NCBI RefSeq assembly: GCF_002843565.1
Contig: NZ_CP025257.1
Location: forward strand, 248,001 to 312,000
Reading direction: 5' to 3'
Origin: Mesoplasma syrphidae
GTDB lineage: Bacteria > Bacillota_I > Bacilli_A > Mycoplasmatales > Mycoplasmataceae
Length of the DNA stretch: 64,000 bases
Under the pieces are notes generated by a model that saw nothing but the letters and a program-made list of their open reading frames with translations, did no database searches and was not told where the DNA came from. Shown one piece after another: positions 41,826 to 58,780 of the stretch (position 1 is the first letter of the stretch; every line of letters starts with the position of its first letter). The translations under genes were made by a program, and so were the position numbers.

Positions 41826-44759
41826 TTATTCGCCTGCCTTTCTCATAGAATCAACATTTAGTGTTGAATATTGAAATTCAACTTGACGACCCACCTTATT
41901 TATTCACATTGCAGCTTTAAGAGTTTTAGATTCAGATTTTTTATATGCATCAAATTTATTTGATGTTAGTAATGCAATTGTTTTTGCATCAGTGTTCAAA
42001 ATAGTTGCATTGGGTGTAAATTTCAATTGCTCTTTATTAATTTGTGAGTTTTCTAATGCCTTGTAAGCATTTAAAACAGTTTTATTTCATTCTTTCATTC
42101 CAGAAGTATAGGCATCAGCTGGCCCTTTATAGTTACTAATTGAAACTTTTGACACAGCTTCTTTAATTTTTAAAGCGGTAGTTGAATCTGGGATATCAAA
42201 GTAGCGGCTCAATAAGTCTTCACTCTTTTTGCCATCACCCATAACTTCTGCAAAATAGTCTCACATTCATGAGGCATACCCAGGTAGGGAAGTATCACTG
42301 TCAGTTGTTAATGTTTTTGTGACATTATCAAAAATATTAAAATCATAGAATGACCCAACTGCTGTTGATTTGGCATATTCAGTTGCAATTGAACTGTTAA
42401 CCAAAAACTTTTGATATTTATTTGAAATTGATTGGTTCATATTTGCAATATTTTTAATTCCATATGCTCCATATAGATTATCTTTTAATTCTTGAGAATT
42501 TGCTTTTGGTTTTTCAGTTTCGCCATTACCACTTTCATCGTCACTCTCAGAAGACAAATTCTGCTGACCAGTTGTGCTTGTTCCTAATAAAGAACCGTTA
42601 ACAAGGAATGGTAAAGCTTCTTGTCCTGTGCTGGTTTCAGAAAGAGCAGCTAAATTTTTAAAACTTTCTACTTCTTTTAAATAAGTCGCTTCATTTTCTT
42701 TAAAAGTAACTTTTTTTTGATTTTCAACAACGTCTTTATCATTTAATAATTTGTAACCATCAATTCGTGAGAAATGTAATCCTGCACTATCAATAAAAGC
42801 AATAATTCCTTGTTCAGAATTTAAAACAACATAGTTTTTATGTTTAATAGGATCTTCGCCATCTTTTGCTTCAACAGGTGCTTCTGCTTCTATATGTTGA
42901 TTAATTTCTTGTAGCAAGTTATCCAAAAAGCTAATTGCCTTTGTAGCCTCTTTACGACGATTCTGAACTTTTTCACTTTCCCCAGGATTATTTCCAATAA
43001 TTGCACTTGCAATTGATTTAGCATCTTCAGTTCCAAAAGCATTTTTAATTAAAATTTCAGTAATTTCTTGCTCTGAAAGTTCTTTAGAGTCAATTGTTTT
43101 AGTTTCAGGACTTTCACTATTAATAAAATCGTATATAGAATACTTATATTCATTAGTGAAATCTTCAGTACTGCTATCCAATGTTAACAACTTTGTTTTT
43201 TTAGCAGCTGTATAGTATTCACTATTTCATTTATTAGCCAAATCTTCAGTTAACGAGCTTTGATCGATAATTCCACGATCATCACTTTTTCCTCGCATGA
43301 TTGTATCTCAATCTGTCATTCCTGCTTGAGCTAATGTCAAACTTGCACCACTAACTGAATTTGCTTCACCTTCAAGTGGATTTTGTGAGGCTTCAGAAGA
43401 AACACTAATATAATTTTGATAAAAATTTACAATTCCAGCTAAACGGTCAATATGTGCTTTAGTTTCATCGCTTGTTCCATCCATCTTATTTGGAATAAAG
43501 TTTTTTAATGAAATTGTTTTTGAATCAGCCACTGACCCTTTAAATGGAATTAATATTTCACTTAAAGCTACCGGTTTTTTATTTTGGTAGTAATTATCGA
43601 CTAAGAACTTTTGTGAATTTTTCATAAAACCAAAAACTCCAGAATCTGTGATTTGTTGTTCAATTCCATTAACTATTTTAGGAACGCTAGTTAGCAATTG
43701 AAAGTAATTTTCAGCTTCTTCATTTTTAGTATTTTTAAATTTTTTCTGACCTTCTTCGTATTTAAATTTTTTCAAAGAGCTTAAATTAGCTTTAAAGAAT
43801 TTTGAATTTCCATTAACAACAAGAGGTCCACTTGCTTCAGATTCATTAAAATTTTCGTCCATATGGTTTAACAAAACTTTAACATTATCAGTTGTTAAAG
43901 ACTTTGCTTGTTCAGCTGTGATAAATTCAAGTTCTGATAAGTCCAAAGTTGATGTCTTAACTTTATTTTCAAAAGCCGTCTCGTTTTTTATTGCTCCTAA
44001 ACCTCCAGAAGCATTAACAAGTTGAGATATCAAACTTGCAGCCCCATTATCAGTTTGAATTGCCTCAGTAATTTTTGTAGATAAAGTACTCATTTCAAAA
44101 GTTGCAAAAGTCGATGTAAAGTTTGCAAATAATGCTTTAAAGTCAAAGCTTTGTCACTCAACACCATTTTCTCAACTTGATGCAGCATATGAACTATTAA
44201 AACCAATAATGCGCTTTAAAGTTGCAAAGGCACTATTATCACTATCAGTAAGAATAAAATTATTTTTAAAAGCCTTTTCTAATGCGTCATTTTTAACATT
44301 AGGAAATAAGCCTTTTAAATATTTTCTTAAACCTTTTTCATCGTCTTTATAAGTAACATTTTTTAAAGTTTTATATTTATCATTAGCACGCCCCCAAATT
44401 GACACGGAATCATTGCTATTTGGAGTTCCTAAAAGAGTTTTTAGTTTATCTTGAAGCCCCTCATTAATATATAAACTTTTGTTATCATCGGTAAGCAATT
44501 TGCCTTCAGCAGCGTCTTGCAAAACCGCAACAGCAAAAAGATTATAAATATTTTTTAAATATTGATTAGAATCGTTAACAAATCCTCCATTATTTTGGTA
44601 TCATTCTAACAGTTTTTCTGAGTCAATTTTCAAATTTCCATTTTCATCAATAAAAATTGAATTTTCATCTTTTTCCTTTTCTGGACCACAAGCAACAACA
44701 AGCACACTGGTTGAGGCAGTGACTGATAATGCTCCTAAAATAGTTAATAGTTTTTTCAT
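41826..44759 (-). CDS. Large surface lipoprotein (P80-like position)
   Basis: 977 residues. Signal MKKLLTILGALSVTASTSVLVVAC with Cys24. Hydrophilic, helix-rich mature part with an acidic Glu/Ser/Gly stretch (SESDDESGNGETEKPKANSQELKDN). No catalytic motif was recognised. Its signal peptide is nearly the same as that of the next lipoprotein. First gene of a three-gene leftward operon ending in the HIT protein; by position it corresponds to P80 of M. hominis. Ribosome site is weak (AAGTGGTG). Confidence 0.8.
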
Positions 44760-48913: not shown

Positions 48914-50329
48914 ATGCGTAAATTTACAATATCAATGCAAGCTGTTTTATTAGGTTCGATTGTTTCAACAAGTGTTGTTAGTTGTATTAAACCAAAATAT
49001 GCTCATGGACCTGCTGGACAACGAGTGCTATTAGTAACTGATGGAGGAAATTTAAAAGACAAGTCTTTTAATGAAAGTTCTCATAACGCTATTATCAAAT
49101 ATGCCAATGAAATTGACCAATGAAATAATACCAAAGGACTTAGTTATAATGCTGAACCCAACTATGTTGAAGCAACAGATCATAATGCAAGTGCATTTAT
49201 TTCTGGATATAAAATGGCTTCGTTTAAAGGAGCAGATGCGATGGTTTTAGCAGGATTTATGCATGCTGGAACAATTGAAACTGCCTCTAAGTTGATGAAA
49301 GATAAAACAGTAATTTTAGCTGACGGAGTTGCTGATTATTCAAATGGGAAAAATCAAAATGTTATTAGCATTAGTTTTAATTCTGAATTGGCGGGATTTG
49401 CAGCTGCTTATGATGCTGCAATTTGGGCTAATCAAAATTTGGATAAAGTAGATCATCATAATAAAGGAGTTATTGCAATCGGAACTTTTGGGGGAATGTC
49501 TTCAAAATATTCAGTTGATAACTATTTATGAGGCTTGATGTTAGGAATTGAAGTATTCAATCGCATTCATCAAAGCGATATTGAAGCAAAACTCTATAAA
49601 AAAGTTGTCTTAGCAAATAACTATATTAATAATAAGTATGCAGATGTCAAGGACACAAAAGTTATGGGTCCCAATGATTCACGTTGATTTACCCAAAGTT
49701 TTGCATTAGGTGGAGCCACACGTTCAGGAATTTTAAATCGGTTAATTGAACACCAAAAAGCTGATGTGATTTTCCCTGTAGCTGGACCTCAAATTTTGGA
49801 TGTTATGAGTTATAGTAATACCAAATATTTACCATATATCATTGGAGTTGATACAGACCAAGTCAATTCATTTCCTGGTTACAAAAATCGTTTTATTAAT
49901 AGTGCTGTTAAGCATCTTCCAAATGCTATTAGTGACGAACTAAAACGTAGCCGTTCGTTAAAAACGGCACAAACTAAAACGGGAGCAACTATAAAAGTTA
50001 ATCAAATTGATATCGATAATTTACAAGACTTTCCAGCTGATGATGGAACAGTTGCCAAGACTCGTGCATCTTGATCAGTTTCTTCTTTTGGAGGTGCCAA
50101 TTTATCACAAAAAACATATATCAAAATATCTGAAATACCAGATAAGGATGCTAACTATACTCCAATCAAATTATTATCAGAAACAATTAAAGATGAGTTT
50201 GCTAGAACAGGAAGTGAGACTTCTCAATATTTAGATGGAAGTACCATTGCTAAAGCTACAGAAGCAATTTTTAAACTTCCAAACTATCAAAAATATATTC
50301 ATAAAATAACTGAAAACGGCTTTGAATAA
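48914..50329 (+). CDS. BMP/PnrA-type substrate-binding lipoprotein
   Basis: 471 residues. Signal MRKFTISMQAVLLGSIVSTSVVSC with Cys24. The mature part begins with the BMP family pattern VLLVTDGGNLKDKSFNESSHNAI and has GADAMVLAGFMHAGTIETA, SFNSELAGFAAAYDAAIW, GVIAIGTFGGMSS and VIFPVAGPQILDVMSY. The family binds nucleosides (PnrA, BmpA) or related ligands for ABC import; the partner ATPase and permeases are not in the window. A longer-than-usual C-terminal part after about 330 is present. Strong GGGGGCAAGG upstream. Stop is 17 nt from the GH18 gene, so one operon is likely. Confidence 0.88.
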
Positions 50330-50346
50330 TAGGAGGGAAAAGCATA

Positions 50347-53300
50347 ATGAAAAAAATTTTGACACTTTTGGGAGCAATCAGTTTAGCCACAACCACTGGA
50401 CTTGCTGTTGTTGCATGTAATAATCAAAAAGAAAGTTTAAAAGAACGAGAATTAGAAAAAGAAGTTCAAACCCTTAAAGATAAAATTAAAAAACTTGAGT
50501 TTGATCTTGAAGCTAATAAAGAACAGTTGGATTCAACTAAGTCTAAACTTAAAGATTTGGTAACAAAGTTGGATGAATTAAAAAATAACCAAAAAGGTGG
50601 TTATGGAAAAATTAGCATTGAGGCAAGTGAAGCTAGAAAAAAAGCAATTGCCAATCAGGAATGACAATCTGTGCTTCAACAAGATTATTCGTTAAGTAAA
50701 AAATCACAAAAAGCTTTGAATTATTCTCCAACTAAAGATACTTTTAGTATTGCTAAACTAATGAACAATCAAAATGACGTTTCAACTTTAGCACATAAAA
50801 ATATAATTCAAATAAAAGACCGCTTAGAGTTTACTCCATATGCTGATATTGGGATTGTTGAAGACACGGTCGAATATTTACTTAAAGAAAAAGGACGTCC
50901 CGGAGCATATCGACAAATTGCAAAAGACGAATTGCAGAAAAATAATTCTTCAATCATTAATTATAATCATTTAGGGAAAATTGCCACAAACAGTAAAGTG
51001 ATTACTGAAGCTAGTGAAGTAACATTAGGATTTATGCAAAATGCCTCTGATACTGGTGAGTTAGTACCAATGTGAAATGCAGCTCCAGCAAAAGATAATT
51101 TAGGAATTTTAGCAGATCAAGCAAATGAAACTGAATATGCAAAATGGTTTAATGATCGCTACAGAAGTTGAACCAATCAAACTGAAACTGGTAAGTTACA
51201 ACCAAATAATGTTCGAATTTCATTTGGACCATTTGCTAATGCGTTATGACACAATGCGTGACTTAACAATAAAACTCCAGAGCAATTGGCCAGCGTTTTA
51301 GAAAAGATTGCTAAAAAATATAATACTAAAAAATTTGACTTTTATTTTGCTGCACCATACTTATCAAAAAATGGAGATCATGCCTCTTCACAGCGACTAT
51401 TAGCTGCAGCATTAAAAATTTTAATTGAACGTGACAATAAATTTGATGTTCAACTATCATTGGTTGTTTCAACAAAATGAGGAATTTCAATTAATCCAGG
51501 TTTATCTTCATCAAGAGATTTAAAACTTTTAGGGGATGAAGCTTATCCATTGTATAACTTTACAAAATATTTAGGGCTAAATTTTAGACTAAATCTAGTA
51601 ACTGGTTATTTAACCGAAACTGATTCACTTCAACTTGGTCAAAGATGAGAAGTTGAAATTATGAAAGAAGCAATTCTCGCTTCACGTAAAAATTGAGTTG
51701 AAATGCATCAAGCTTTTAATTCAGTTTCAAAAAGTGACTTACCATCCGAAAAAGAAATTTCTCGAAGAATTAAGGTCACACCATGAATTGGCCGAAGAGC
51801 TGAAAAAGCAAGCTATAACTTTACTCCTGAAAGTGCAATTGAGTTGCGCGAGTTTGCAGAACAACAAAATTTAGGTGGTATTGGAATGTTTTACATTTCC
51901 CGTGATGTTCCAAGCGAATTTCAAAAGAAAGGTAATTCTATTTATAACTTAAGCGATGATAATGCTTTAAATCAAAATATTCGTTCAGGTTCAGGATTTA
52001 AACAGTTTACTTATGCAAAGGCCCTAAATGGAACTTTAAAACGTGAGCACTTGGTTCCCGAAGCTCAAACAAAAGCTGAAATTAGGGTAATTGGGGGAAT
52101 AGATTATCAAGAAGACATTGAAAAAGTTAAAGCTTTAGACAATATTGAAAATGACAGTCATGTAATTGTTAGTGAAGTTGGTGGCGGCATCTCTGATGAC
52201 AAAAATCCACCCAATTGAGAACCACCAAGTGGCCAAAATACTAGCATGTATAAAACTTGAAAAGATGCTAATCCAAATCGTTCAGAAAAAATAGTTCGCA
52301 AAGCTGTTAAAAATAAAAATACCTATTATTCACCATATTTAGATGCTGGTTTATATCAAGGTAATGATATTGTCAAAATTATAGAAGAAGTTCCAGCAAT
52401 GGATCACTTAACATTAGCGTTTGTTCAGCAGGTTAATCAACATGGAAATAAACTTGAAATGTCAATTGCTGGACAAGCTAAAAATAACGAGGGATATGCA
52501 TGATGAGAAGAAACACAATTATGAGCAAAAATGCTTAAACCATTAGTTGATAAAAATGCTTTTGAAAATATTAAAGTTGCTTATGGAGGAGCTATAACTG
52601 GAGGATTTACTGAAAAAAATCCATGAACTTTAGCTAATAAGCTTCACTCCAATGATTCTGCTAGAGCTCAAGAAGTTTTAACTGAAGCTTTAGTTGGATA
52701 TCAACAAGAACTTGTTGATATTGTTCAAAAATATAACAATAAAACTGTGCAAATGCCTAAAGCAATTGACTTTGACATTGAAGGGCATGCTCAAAGTTTA
52801 GATGCTGATAATCGTTTATTGGCAAAAACGTTAGCCGATATGAAAAAAGCAGATTCTAGTTGAGATTTCTCAATTACGTTACCAGTATTGCCTACAGGAT
52901 TAACTGTTGTTGGTTACCATGTAATGGATATTTTTATTGAAGAATATCATAAAGCAGGGCTTGCCCAAAAAGACTTACCAATTATTAATTTAATGTTAAT
53001 GGATTATGGTGATGGATTTTATAGACATGCTAGAGATGTTCGCAAAGTAACTAATTTCCAATTAGCAAAAGAGGCCGTTGAAGCAACTAAAGTTAATCTA
53101 GAAAATAGCATTATTAAGCATTTTAAAACAGTTGAATTAAAGAATTTGTATTCTAAATTGGCAGGAACACCAATGATTGGAGTTAATGATACGATTCAAG
53201 GAGTATTTACTCTAGAAGATGCCAAAGAAATGTATAATTGAGCTCATGAAATTGAATTAGCATATGTTTCAATTTGATCAATGAATGATGATCGTGGATT

Positions 53301-53418
53301 TAATTTAGATTCTAAAAAACCAAGTGCCAAAACTTTAACTAGTCATGGTTTGACTTATCTCAAAGAATACGATTTTTCAAAAGCTTTTGCTGGTAATTGA
53401 AACAAAATTGGAAAATAA
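50347..53418 (+). CDS. Lipoprotein with two GH18 (chitinase-like) domains
   Basis: 1023 residues. Signal MKKILTLLGAISLATTTGLAVVAC, Cys24; a Lys/Glu coiled coil at about 30-85. The C-terminal GH18 barrel (about 685-1015) has an intact catalytic DxDxE: Asp808-Phe-Asp810-Ile-Glu812 (IDFDIEG), preceded by VAYGGAITGG, and ends with AYVSIWSMNDD (the GH18 W strand). A first, related domain (about 275-580) shows the same landmarks, VRISFGPFANALW and GGIGMFYISRD, but the motif reads Asp331-Phe-Tyr333-Phe-Ala335, so the acid/base Glu is lost. The protein probably degrades or binds chitin or related N-acetylglucosamine glycans at the cell surface. AGGAGGG precedes the ATG. Confidence 0.82.
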
Positions 53419-53476: not shown

Positions 53477-53980
53477 ATGATTACTAAAGAAACAATAATT
53501 TGATTAAGCGAGCAGCAAAAAAAATTAGACAACTATATTGGCCAAAAATGAAATTTACAAAATGATGAAACTATTTTGAAAAAACGAATGGTTGCCTTTT
53601 TAGTTGAACTTGGTGAATATGCCAATGAAGAGCGCAGTTTTAAATTTTGATCTCAAAAGCCTGAAGCTGAATTAAATGTTCAACTTGACGAGTATATTGA
53701 CGGAATTCATTTTTTAATTAGTATTGGAAATCAAATTGGCTATGATTTTAATACTTATCAAAGTACAGATTTTGGAATTGATAATAATATAGATATTTAT
53801 TTGACTTTAATTAGTATGTTTAGTGAATTTATCAAAACCCGTGATTTTGAAACTTATGAAGATTTATTAAATATTTATTTACAAATTTGTGAAGCCAAAA
53901 TTTATAGTGAAACAGAGATCATTGAAGCCTATAAATTAAAAAATGCCATTAACTTTAAACGTCAAGACAATAATTATTAA
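53477..53980 (+). CDS. Dimeric dUTP diphosphatase (all-alpha NTPase)
   Basis: 167 residues. Pattern of dUTPase_2: LSEQQKKLDNYI, metal-binding helix VAFLVELGEYANEERSFKFW (E-L-x-E-x-x-N-E) and second helix LDEYIDGIHFLISIG (E-x-x-D). It hydrolyses dUTP to dUMP, keeping uracil out of DNA. Ribosome site AAGAGGTG. It is a single gene between two terminators. Confidence 0.88.
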
Positions 53981-55736: not shown

Positions 55737-56945
55737 TTATCTAACAAGCATTTTTATTGTGGCATTAATTAACTTATCTAATTCATTATCAATTTTTGAG
55801 GAAATTGATAATGTCTCAAATAGCTTTTCTAATAATGTCTCGCTTTCAAGGTCATGAATTATTTCGACTTCACTTATTATTTTTTTAAGTCCTTGATCAT
55901 TTAATCCAACCATTGTTGTTCCTGTTGAAAATAGCTTTTTTTTGTTATAAAAATAATCAGACATAAAAAATGACAAATTTGAAAACTTAAAGTCTGAGTC
56001 ACTTTTTATTCCTCACATTCCATTTGAAATTATTAAATTTTTATCTGAATTCGAAAATAAAAATTTTCTTTCTCCTAATAATTTGCAAATATATAACGTA
56101 TTTAATTGTACTTTTAATCTTGCTCTTGAAGGCAATTTGGAATAGTATTCTTGTTTCTTTATTTTGTTGCTGAAATTTCCAATGTCTGCTGTTTGAGAAT
56201 AAATTCCTTTTTCAATTTTTTCTTCTCTTTGTTGATATATGTTTAGCTTTTTCCCAATTGCTTTTTTTGTTATTAATTTTTGTCCAATTTGTGCAATTAA
56301 TTTTATTGATGAATTTAAAATTTCTTTATTCTTGGCAATTACAATTTCAATAGGTTCAATAATATCAATTATTTTCTTAACATCATCTTCACAATTTTTA
56401 AAAGTATCAATTCTTATACAATTACTGTATTTTAAAAATAAATTTTCAATAGGTTCAATAATATCAATTATTTTTTGCTGTTCTTCTAAGGATGGTAATG
56501 AAATGTCTATATGACTAAAATCTGCCCTTTTAAACCTATATACCTTTATACCTGTAGCAAATTTTGCAAAAATATTTTGATTCATTTTTAATCAATAAAA
56601 AAGTCATCTATTCAAAACTTTTGTGTTATCTGGAATAATTTTTATTTGCTCTCCGCCTAAGATGCCTTCTTTGTCAGCATTATAAAAAATTACTTTACCC
56701 AATTCCTTTACTGTTTCAGAAGTAGAAATTAAGAAAACATCATTTTTAGACATCAGGGAATTAGTTTTTAAAAAAGATTTATCTACAAAAAAAGAAAAAT
56801 CATTATCTATGATTTCAAGTTTGTATGTTTTTCCGTAATGAAGTGCTAAGTATTCCAAGTTTTTATCGTGAGATAAATCGTTCTTTTTAAAACTGCCGTT
56901 TCCACGTTCAGTTTTACAAATCTCATTAAGTTTATAAATAGCCAT
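55737..56945 (-). CDS. hsdS: Type I restriction-modification specificity subunit HsdS (expressed copy)
   Basis: 402 residues. First target-recognition domain about 1-145 (MAIYKLNEICKTERGNGS to HIDISLPSLEEQQ), first conserved helix region with QQKIIDIIEPIENLFLKYS, a repeat of that module (KKIIDIIEPIEIVIAKN), second recognition domain about 230-360 and a final conserved helix. HsdS directs HsdM and HsdR to a bipartite DNA site. GGAGG stands 7 nt before the ATG and an extended -10 (TGATAAAAT) lies about 31 nt upstream, so this copy can be expressed. Its start codon is inside a 25-bp repeat shared in inverted orientation with the second hsdS. Confidence 0.88.
56345..56375 (-). repeat. 31-bp copy of the internal hsdS repeat
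   Basis: Identical on the minus strand to 31 bases of the 35-bp repeat at 56443-56477 and 58181-58215; encodes KIIDIIEPIE. Confidence 0.85.
56443..56477 (-). repeat. 35-bp internal hsdS repeat, left copy
   Basis: Encodes QKIIDIIEPIEN. Perfect inverted copy at 58181-58215 in the second hsdS. Confidence 0.88.
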
Positions 56946-56953
56946 TAAAAAAC
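56929..56953 (-). repeat. 25-bp inverted repeat over the hsdS start codon, left copy
   Basis: Reads GTTTTTTAATGGC followed by TATTTATAAACT on the minus strand, spanning the start codon and first residues MAIYKL. Perfect inverted partner at 57756-57780. Likely recombination site of the adjacent tyrosine recombinase. Confidence 0.88.
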
Positions 56954-56975
56954 CTCCATTTTTTTATTTATAGTA

Positions 56976-56984
56976 ATTTTATCA
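56976..56984 (-). promoter_or_regulatory. Extended -10 for hsdS (leftward)
   Basis: TGATAAAAT on the minus strand, within AAATGATAAAAT. The same 12 bases occur before hsdR (63425-63436), which supports a shared promoter type. Confidence 0.5.
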
Positions 56985-57025
56985 TTTTATTAAAAAGAAA
57001 AGATAATAAATTTTGGAGGTATATT

Positions 57026-57748
57026 ATGAAAAAAAATGAGTATTTAAAATTTTTAAAGAAAAATAACTATTCTGCAAACACAATATCTACTTATAAAAGT
57101 ATTTTAAGTATTTATCAAAACGATTTTGTGAATATAGCGAGAATTAAAAAACATATGTTAAAGTATTTTAGTTCGCCAAATACTGTATGAACACATTACA
57201 ATGTAATTTGTTCATACATGAAATGAAGCAAGGATAAAAGGTTGGGTAATTTTAAAGAAATGAAACTGCCCAAAATTCCAAAGACATATATGAAAGTTTT
57301 TAAAAAAGATTTCTTGATAAAAAAAACAAATATAAATGATGAAGATTCGGAATTGTTAAAACAAAAGAAAATTGTAATCAGATTTTTGTTTGAGACAGGA
57401 ATAAGAGCTGCAGAACTAAATTCTATATTAGAAATAAATTCTAAAACTATTAAAGTTGTTGGTAAGGGAAATAAAGTAAGAGAAATATTCCATAGAAATG
57501 ATACAACTAAGCAATTAAAAGAATTTATATATACAACAAAAACATTACGTTTTTGGGTAAAGGAAATATTAGGAGAGAATTTTACTCCACACTCAATTAG
57601 AAGATCATATGCTACTCATATGCTACTAGGTGGTGCAAATCCGAAGATGGTAATGATGCAATTAGGGCATGAAAAAATTGAAACAACTTTCAGATATTTA
57701 AATTTATCATTAGAAGAAAATTGAAAAATTTACAGTAAGTTTTTATAG
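57026..57748 (+). CDS. Tyrosine site-specific recombinase (XerC/D-HvsR type)
   Basis: 240 residues, shorter than XerC/D (about 300). N-terminal SAM-like core-binding part (FLKKNNYSANTISTYKSIL, about 9-27). Catalytic residues: Arg127 (ETGIRAAEL), Lys148 region (VVGKGNK), His189 and Arg192 (HSIRRSYATH), His215 (QLGHEKIETT) and nucleophile Tyr224 (FRYL). All are present. Position between two oppositely oriented hsdS genes with inverted repeats argues that it shuffles them, as recombinases do at hsd loci of M. pulmonis and streptococci. Divergent from the left hsdS; strong site TGGAGG before its ATG. Confidence 0.9.
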
Positions 57749-57762
57749 ACTTACTGTTTTTT
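57733..57762 (+). terminator. Terminator of the recombinase gene, abutting the silent hsdS
   Basis: CAGTAAGT (57733-57740) and ACTTACTG (57749-57756), 8-nt loop, then TTTTTT (57757-57762). The last stem base and the T-run belong to the 25-bp repeat; the ATG of the next hsdS comes 1 nt after the T-run. Confidence 0.78.
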
Positions 57763-57780
57763 AATGGCTATTTATAAACT
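57756..57780 (+). repeat. 25-bp inverted repeat over the hsdS start codon, right copy
   Basis: Identical to the minus-strand sequence at 56929-56953. Contains the ATG of the rightward hsdS. Confidence 0.88.
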
Positions 57781-58780
57781 AGGCGATATATCAATAATAC
57801 AAAACGGCAGTACACCAAGTACTAAAAATGAAAGTTTATGAAAAAAGGAAATACCCTTTTTAGGTCCTTCAGACATTGAAGCTAATCGCGCTTCACGATA
57901 TGTAACTAAAAATAAGGCAAAAAGGCCTGGAACCATTTTAATTTCAACAACAGCTACAATTGGGAATATAGGAATACTTGAAGTGGAGTCTTGATTTAAT
58001 CAACAAATTACATCGATTGAAGCCAACCCTAATTTTGTTAAAGATAAATTTTTATTTTACTATTTTTTAACTCAAAAAAATAAAATAAAAAAAATATCAG
58101 ATGGGGGATCAGTATTTAGCATAATACATGTAAATACTTTTAGAAATTGAATAATTGATTTATCTTCTTTAGAAGAGCAACAAAAAATAATTGATATTAT
58201 TGAACCTATTGAAAAAATGAAAAATAAATTTATGACTTTAAATAAAACAGTTTTGGAACTAATAAAAAAAATTGAGTTGTCTGATGAAAAAATAAGAATA
58301 ATTGATTTTTTTTATGAAGTAAGAGAGAAACCAAAAAATATAAAGCAAATTTCTGCAAAAGTGCTTTCTGAAAATAAAGGTTTAATTTTAAAAGCGGAAA
58401 GTCCAAATACATATAAAACAAATACTTTTTATTGCAATGAGGGAACTTTCATTTTTTGTTCAATAAGAACTTATTTACAAAAATGAGGAATTACTCCGTT
58501 TGATGCTGATGTTAATGGAACTCTTTTTCAGTTTGAAATCAAAAAAAATTTGACTCCTTTAATAAATTATTTGAAAAATGAAAGTTCATGATCAACATTT
58601 AATTTATTATCCAAAGGAACTAAAATGCCTGTTCTTTCCAAAAAAGATTTTTTAAACATTGAAATCAATAAAACTAAATTTGAAATTAAGAAAATTGACT
58701 TAATCTTAAAAAATATTAATAAAATAATTATTGATATGGAAAGTTTAATTGAGAAGAGCGTTAGTCTTTTGGTAAAATAA
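57764..58780 (+). CDS. hsdS: Type I specificity subunit HsdS, probably silent copy
   Basis: 338 residues. Recognition domain 1 (MAIYKLGDISIIQNGSTPSTKNESLW to FRNWIIDLSSLEEQQ), conserved helix QQKIIDIIEPIEKMKNKF, recognition domain 2 (about 190-310, ISAKVLSENKGLILKAESP to KMPVLSKKDFLNIEIN) and a final helix. Apart from the shared first six residues and the helical repeat, it differs from the other hsdS, so it would recognise another site. The ATG follows a transcription terminator directly and has no Shine-Dalgarno, so it should be off in this orientation. Convergent with hsdM. Confidence 0.85.
58181..58215 (+). repeat. 35-bp internal hsdS repeat, right copy
   Basis: Perfect inverted partner of 56443-56477; encodes QKIIDIIEPIEK at the first recognition-domain boundary. 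Confidence 0.88.

What the first reader, a model, noticed from the sequence alone, without database searches (positions are those of the whole stretch)
50347..53418. Tandem GH18 lipoprotein with one dead catalytic domain
The C-terminal barrel keeps DFDIE (808-812) while the N-terminal related domain has DFYFA (331-335), losing the acid/base Glu. The dead copy may have become a glycan-binding module. A lipid-anchored chitinase-like protein in a wall-less, probably arthropod-associated bacterium could act on the gut peritrophic matrix or on chitin-derived sugars. Its co-transcription with a BMP-type receptor hints at uptake of a linked nutrient.
Basis: partly seen in the sequence, partly recalled or inferred. 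Interest (0 to 1): 0.6.

Follow-up and report, generated by a model that had tools for sequence, protein, structure and literature searches.

The report
Half-dead twin chitinase on cell surface
A wall-less, probably insect-associated bacterium carries a membrane-anchored protein made of two related chitin-cutting barrels, of which the second looks active and the first lost its cutting residues once, long ago, yet has been preserved about as carefully ever since, so it probably grips a sugar chain rather than cuts it.

Summary
Window 50347-53418 (+, code 4, 1023 aa) is a lipoprotein of two homologous GH18 barrels. The C-half is a GH18 chitinase domain of the Pyrococcus AD2/Streptomyces Chi1 type, with DFDIE at 808-812. 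The N-half is also a GH18-type barrel: profile match to the C-half E about 1e-8, to PDB chitinase 3a4w E 6e-8, top fold matches all GH18 (Z 21.4). At the catalytic strand it reads DFYFA. The loss is ancient and fixed: Tyr and Ala/Ser replace the second Asp and the Glu in all 26 intact two-domain homologues sampled. The tree favours one duplication (N-clade support 100, stem 6.25 changes per site). The N-half is under about the same purifying selection as the live half (dN/dS 0.08-0.30), and its pocket face is five times more invariant than its back. The N-domain was found only in one Mollicutes family and not without the C-domain. Best reading: a former chitinase barrel that became a binding module acting in cis; its ligand is unproven. 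The BMP-receptor link is weak (two sister species only), and a chitin-feeding route looks incomplete. New variant of a known kind, moderate interest.

The parts
50331..50337 (+). ribosome-binding site AGGAGGG, 9 nt before ATG
   Evidence: read directly
50347..53418 (+). tandem GH18 lipoprotein gene (1023 aa, code 4)
50347..50418 (+). lipoprotein signal, Cys24 lipidation site
   Evidence: NCBIfam LP_plasma above cut-off; C24 nearly invariant
50428..50586 (+). helical hairpin / coiled-coil stalk (residues 28-80), present in the M. seiffertii orthologue, absent in M. seiffertii's second copy and in Spiroplasma TIUS-1
   Evidence: DSSP of model; alignment gaps
50809..52032 (+). N-terminal pseudo-GH18 barrel (residues 155-562)
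51337..51351 (+). DFYFA (331-335): position of the GH18 DxDxE motif, second Asp and Glu lost
52033..52293 (+). low-confidence linker between the barrels (residues 563-649)
   Evidence: low pLDDT
52294..53400 (+). C-terminal GH18 catalytic barrel (residues 650-1018)
52768..52782 (+). DFDIE (808-812): DxDxE catalytic motif, Glu812 predicted acid/base
   Evidence: invariant in 26 homologues
48914..50329 (+). BMP/PnrA-type substrate-binding lipoprotein, 17 nt upstream; neighbour only in this genus
   Evidence: PF02608 E 4e-13
53477..53980 (+). dUTPase, downstream neighbour
   Evidence: PF08761 E 1e-47

Best explanation
A surface lipoprotein with a GH18 chitinase barrel predicted to be active (C) held behind a GH18-derived barrel (N) that should no longer hydrolyse by the GH18 mechanism. 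Shown by sequence: N and C are homologous; N forms one clade that lost the catalytic Asp/Glu before its members diverged, changed greatly, and was then conserved. N keeps a conserved pocket face and was not found without C in intact genes. Inferred: C cuts chitin or chito-oligosaccharides by the usual GH18 substrate-assisted mechanism (Glu812 as acid/base, Asp810 assisting). N binds a GlcNAc-containing chain in its altered cleft and presents it to C at the cell surface, the role that a carbohydrate-binding module plays in other chitinases. The released sugars could feed the GlcNAc PTS and nagA/nagB, or the action could loosen host chitin barriers.
For: C-domain GH18 by sequence and fold with DxDxE intact. 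N homologous to C and to PDB GH18, GH18 fold. Tyr333 and Ala/Ser335 in 26 of 26 intact two-domain homologues. N one clade, support 100, stem 6.25 changes per site, then within-clade branches like those of C, with N and C trees roughly parallel. dN/dS of N 0.08-0.30, like C at 0.04-0.29. Pocket-face positions of N 52% invariant against 10% on the opposite face; C 66% and 8%. N profile found only in family f1 among 296 genomes of the class, whereas C-type domains occur alone. Lipid anchor. nagA, nagB and a GlcNAc-like PTS present.
Against: No binding or activity data. The two models are of modest confidence (pLDDT 58 and 57.5; four-sequence alignment). A biochemically tested GH18-like pseudo-endoglycosidase of Bacteroidales (BT1284) showed no measurable binding to the glycans tried (PMC11180146), so conservation does not prove lectin activity. 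The N-cleft is least conserved at strands beta5 and beta6, where C is conserved. A route from chitobiose to GlcNAc is missing from the families tested. A cultured Mesoplasma annotated with chitin-degradation genes made acid from GlcNAc but not from chitin (PMC12239587).
Confidence: 0.58

Rival explanations
1. The N-barrel is a structural or protein-binding scaffold: it positions the catalytic barrel away from the membrane or docks onto a partner (another lipoprotein or a host protein), and its conserved cleft is a protein interface.
For: Not found without C; single-domain paralogues carry a different N-terminal extension of about 220 residues in its place; the tested pseudo-GH18 BT1284 does not bind the glycans tried.
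Against: Conservation concentrates on the barrel face that holds the sugar cleft in GH18, in much the same pattern as the active domain, including aromatic and polar side chains (W480, R484, E486, Y516, R519, D520).
Confidence: 0.25
2. The N-barrel is a re-purposed enzyme with another catalytic apparatus (invariant acids such as D167, E486, D520 at the strand ends).
For: Very long stem followed by strong constraint, and a set of new invariant acidic and basic residues on the pocket face.
Against: The GH18 acid/base and its assisting Asp are lost; nothing tested shows a replacement geometry; the model is too coarse to place side chains.
Confidence: 0.09
3. The N-half is a decaying pseudo-copy without function.
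For: Loss of catalytic residues; the gene as a whole has decayed in some genomes (G007, G017, G036, G378).
Against: dN/dS 0.08-0.30, like the live half; 88 of 408 N positions invariant over 21 homologues; substitutions fixed across genera. In the broken genes both halves are affected.
Confidence: 0.03
4. Uptake module: the gene works with the adjacent BMP receptor as a linked nutrient system.
For: 17-nt gap, own RBS, no terminator-like site between the two genes.
Against: The neighbour is present only in the sister species; Pfam places the receptor in the PnrA-like (Bmp) family, whose characterised members bind nucleosides (general knowledge); the second two-domain copy in the same genome lies elsewhere without one.
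Confidence: 0.05

Closest known systems
Pyrococcus furiosus chitinase AD2 (2dsk, 3a4w) and Streptomyces venezuelae chitinase 1 (9buf), GH18
   Same: Nearest solved relatives of both halves by sequence and fold; the C-half keeps DxDxE, MDY and the TPMIGVND segment
   Different: The N-half has Tyr and Ala where these have Asp and Glu. In the 3a4w mutant, whose motif reads DFDIA, the engineered Ala sits where the N-half has a natural one
Tandem GH18 chitinases: Thermococcus kodakarensis ChiA, Paenibacillus ChiW
   Same: Two GH18 barrels in one polypeptide; ChiW is cell-surface expressed (title of 5gzt)
   Different: Both T. kodakarensis domains are catalytic, exo and endo (PMC3575233)
Bacteroidales GH18-like proteins (BT1284, B. 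faecium GH18-like)
   Same: GH18 homologues with both catalytic acids replaced, conserved across species, encoded next to an active GH18 (PMC11180146)
   Different: Separate genes, endoglycosidase type, Gram-negative; no binding measured to the glycans tried
Chi-lectins (YKL-39, YKL-40, Ym1, plant chitinase-like lectins)
   Same: GH18 fold without the catalytic Glu; some bind chito-oligosaccharides (YKL-39, title of 4ay1; PMC1945033, PMC3662789)
   Different: Eukaryotic, and not fused to a live barrel of this subfamily
Insect group II/III multi-domain chitinases
   Same: Several GH18 domains in one chain (structures); group II includes inactive domains (from memory, not checked here)
   Different: Eukaryotic, another GH18 branch

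Membership tests
GH18 hydrolase (C-half, 650-1018) | Sequence homology to characterised GH18 | tested here: met
   9buf E 3e-29, 2dsk E 3e-15
GH18 hydrolase (C-half, 650-1018) | (beta/alpha)8 barrel of GH18 type | tested here: met
   VIA Z 26.1 to 9buf, 276 residues, rmsd 2.9
GH18 hydrolase (C-half, 650-1018) | DxDxE with catalytic Glu | tested here: met
   DFDIE 808-812, invariant in 26 homologues
GH18 hydrolase (C-half, 650-1018) | Pfam PF00704 above cut-off (a detection model, not a defining biochemical feature) | tested here: not met
   No match. Its nearest PDB relatives are nonetheless deposited as chitinases, so it is placed in GH18 by homology, fold and motif
GH18 hydrolase (C-half, 650-1018) | Chitin hydrolysis | not testable with these tools
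   needs assay
GH18 hydrolase (N-half, 155-562) | Sequence homology to characterised GH18 | tested here: met
   3a4w E 6e-8 as profile; N-C profile match E 2-5e-8
GH18 hydrolase (N-half, 155-562) | (beta/alpha)8 barrel of GH18 type | tested here: met
   eight strands, Foldseek E 1e-7, VIA Z 21.4, 272 residues, rmsd 3.4; model pLDDT 58
GH18 hydrolase (N-half, 155-562) | DxDxE with catalytic Glu | tested here: not met
   DFYFA in P0001; [DE]FYF[AS] in 26 of 26
Chi-lectin / GH18 binding module (N-half) | GH18 fold without catalytic Glu | tested here: met
Chi-lectin / GH18 binding module (N-half) | Binds a glycan | not testable with these tools
   needs glycan array or chitin pull-down
Mollicute lipoprotein | Signal peptide with lipobox Cys | tested here: met
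   NF038029 32.7 bits against cut-off 24

The most novel reading that the evidence does not exclude
The N-barrel is a GH18-derived module with a new job, either a family-specific lectin for a host glycan other than chitin that fastens the bacterium to arthropod tissue, or an enzyme with a new catalytic set on the GH18 barrel.
Probability: 0.25. Interest if true: 0.7.

Novelty: new variant of a known kind. Interest (0 to 1): 0.42.

Why it matters
Catalytically dead GH18 proteins are well known in animals and plants, and separate ones in Bacteroidales. A bacterial family in which a dead and a live GH18 barrel are fused, inherited together and about equally constrained gives a natural paired design in which the function of a pseudo-glycosidase can be tested in cis. 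It also bears on how wall-less arthropod symbionts, whose chitinases are listed as putative virulence or protection factors (PMC5874924, PMC6716498), use such proteins. Whether those annotated chitinases are two-domain proteins of this family was not checked.

Tried and rejected
PF00704 search of the own genome and Pfam scan of the protein: no GH18 match, so Pfam alone would have missed both halves. Viral and phage collections: no relative; plasmid matches, where listed, cover the C-half only, 25 of 37 records being Lactococcus. The genome-contig scan found only M. seiffertii and Spiroplasma sp. TIUS-1, so wider sampling came from the genome search. For structure prediction only window sequence and the search for related loci sequences were used, hence a shallow four-row alignment. 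Conserved gene neighbourhood as a clue to function: none; apart from the gene itself no neighbour family recurs in more than 6 of 18 neighbourhoods, and most of those that recur follow genus lines. Literature searches found no description of this tandem arrangement in Mollicutes, in an open-licence library only.

Full report
Observation. The ORF at 50347-53418 (+) is a 1023-residue protein only under code 4, with 19 TGA codons read as Trp. It starts 9 nt after AGGAGGG and has a mollicute lipoprotein signal with Cys24.

Identity of the halves. Pfam does not see either half as GH18. The C-half matches solved GH18 chitinases: 9buf E 1e-14 by single sequence and E 3e-29 by profile, Pyrococcus AD2 E 3e-15; its part of the full-length model matches 9buf at Z 26.1. 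The N-half profile matches the C-half profile (prob. 95, E 2-5e-8) and PDB chitinase 3a4w (E 6e-8). Its model, though of modest confidence (pLDDT 58, pTM 0.67), has the eight strands of the barrel. The best ten Foldseek matches are all GH18 or GH18-like, and the best VIA matches are Pyrococcus AD2 and 9buf at Z 21. The motif segment lies at strand beta4, where GH18 keeps DxDxE.

The loss. In the ungapped alignment D331 matches D808, Y333 matches D810 and A335 matches E812; the HH alignment puts E812 in a gap, and either way no Glu is present. 3a4w, an engineered catalytic-site mutant, reads DFDIA, so the N-half carries naturally an Ala like that mutant's. All 26 intact two-domain homologues read [DE]FYF[AS] in N and DFDIE in C. 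In the domain tree N is one clade (SH-aLRT 100) on a stem of 6.25 changes per site, and the branching of N and C runs roughly parallel; this was a quick tree without bootstraps, and such a long stem leaves the placing of N against the single-domain relatives uncertain. The simplest reading is one duplication, one loss, rapid change, then constraint.

Constraint. Pairwise dN/dS is 0.08-0.30 in N and 0.04-0.29 in C over seven pairs (simple NG86, dS near saturation in some pairs). Mean pairwise identity is 57% in N and 63% in C. Positions at the C-terminal ends of the strands, the side of the GH18 cleft, are 52% invariant in N against 10% at the opposite ends (C: 66% and 8%). In N the face is conserved at beta1-beta4, beta7 and beta8 but less at beta5 and beta6, where C has its MDYG motif. 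This is what an altered but used cleft would look like; a protein interface is not excluded.

Distribution. Two-domain proteins occur in several genera of one Mollicutes family; the N profile matched 12 of 296 genomes of the class, all in that family. The own genome has a second two-domain copy (61%) and a single-domain one. C-type domains occur alone; N was not found alone in intact genes. Broken remnants exist in G007, G017, G036 and G378.

Context. A BMP/PnrA-type receptor gene ends 17 nt upstream, with no terminator-like site between, but this order recurs only in M. seiffertii. nagA, nagB and a GlcNAc-like PTS are present; the nagB match spans 2 TAA and may be broken or include flanking sequence. 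GH3, GH20 and Lac/Cel PTS IIA gave no match. So GlcNAc use is likely, while a complete chitin-feeding route is not shown. A cultured Mesoplasma with annotated chitin-degradation genes made acid from GlcNAc but not from chitin (PMC12239587).

Comparison and verdict. It probably works like a chitinase with a binding module, where the module is itself a dead chitinase barrel. Tandem GH18 enzymes with two live domains are known (PMC3575233), as are dead GH18 lectins (PMC1945033) and separate dead GH18-like proteins in Bacteroidales, of which the one tested bound none of the glycans tried (PMC11180146). The fusion of dead and live barrels as a conserved bacterial family was not found described in the open-licence library, which misses most subscription journals. 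I file it as a new variant of a known kind. What N binds, and whether C cuts chitin, are inferred.

Noticed in passing
window 55737-58780: Two type I hsdS genes in opposite orientation flank a tyrosine recombinase (57026-57748), with perfect inverted repeats of 31 nt (56345-56375 / 58184-58214) and 25 nt (56929-56953 / 57756-57780), next to hsdM: by anatomy an invertible, phase-variable specificity locus.
   Followed up: partly
L041, L042, L043 (genomes G041, G013, G030): Tandem two-domain copies: N-domains group by gene copy, but C-domains partly group by genome, as if the live domain were homogenised by gene conversion.
   Followed up: no
L048:14265-16943: An 892-aa protein with two C-type GH18 domains, both with intact DFDIE: a second, live-live tandem in the same family.
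   Followed up: no
L052, L062, L061, L094: Broken remnants of the two-domain gene (in-frame TAA, split ORFs) in four genomes: repeated loss.
   Followed up: no
L038:1-10547 (own genome 643-654 kb): Four similar lipoproteins of about 690 aa in tandem beside the two GH18 paralogues and near an ABC transporter ATPase.
   Followed up: no
window 41826-44759 (-): 977-aa lipoprotein without any Pfam match.
   Followed up: no
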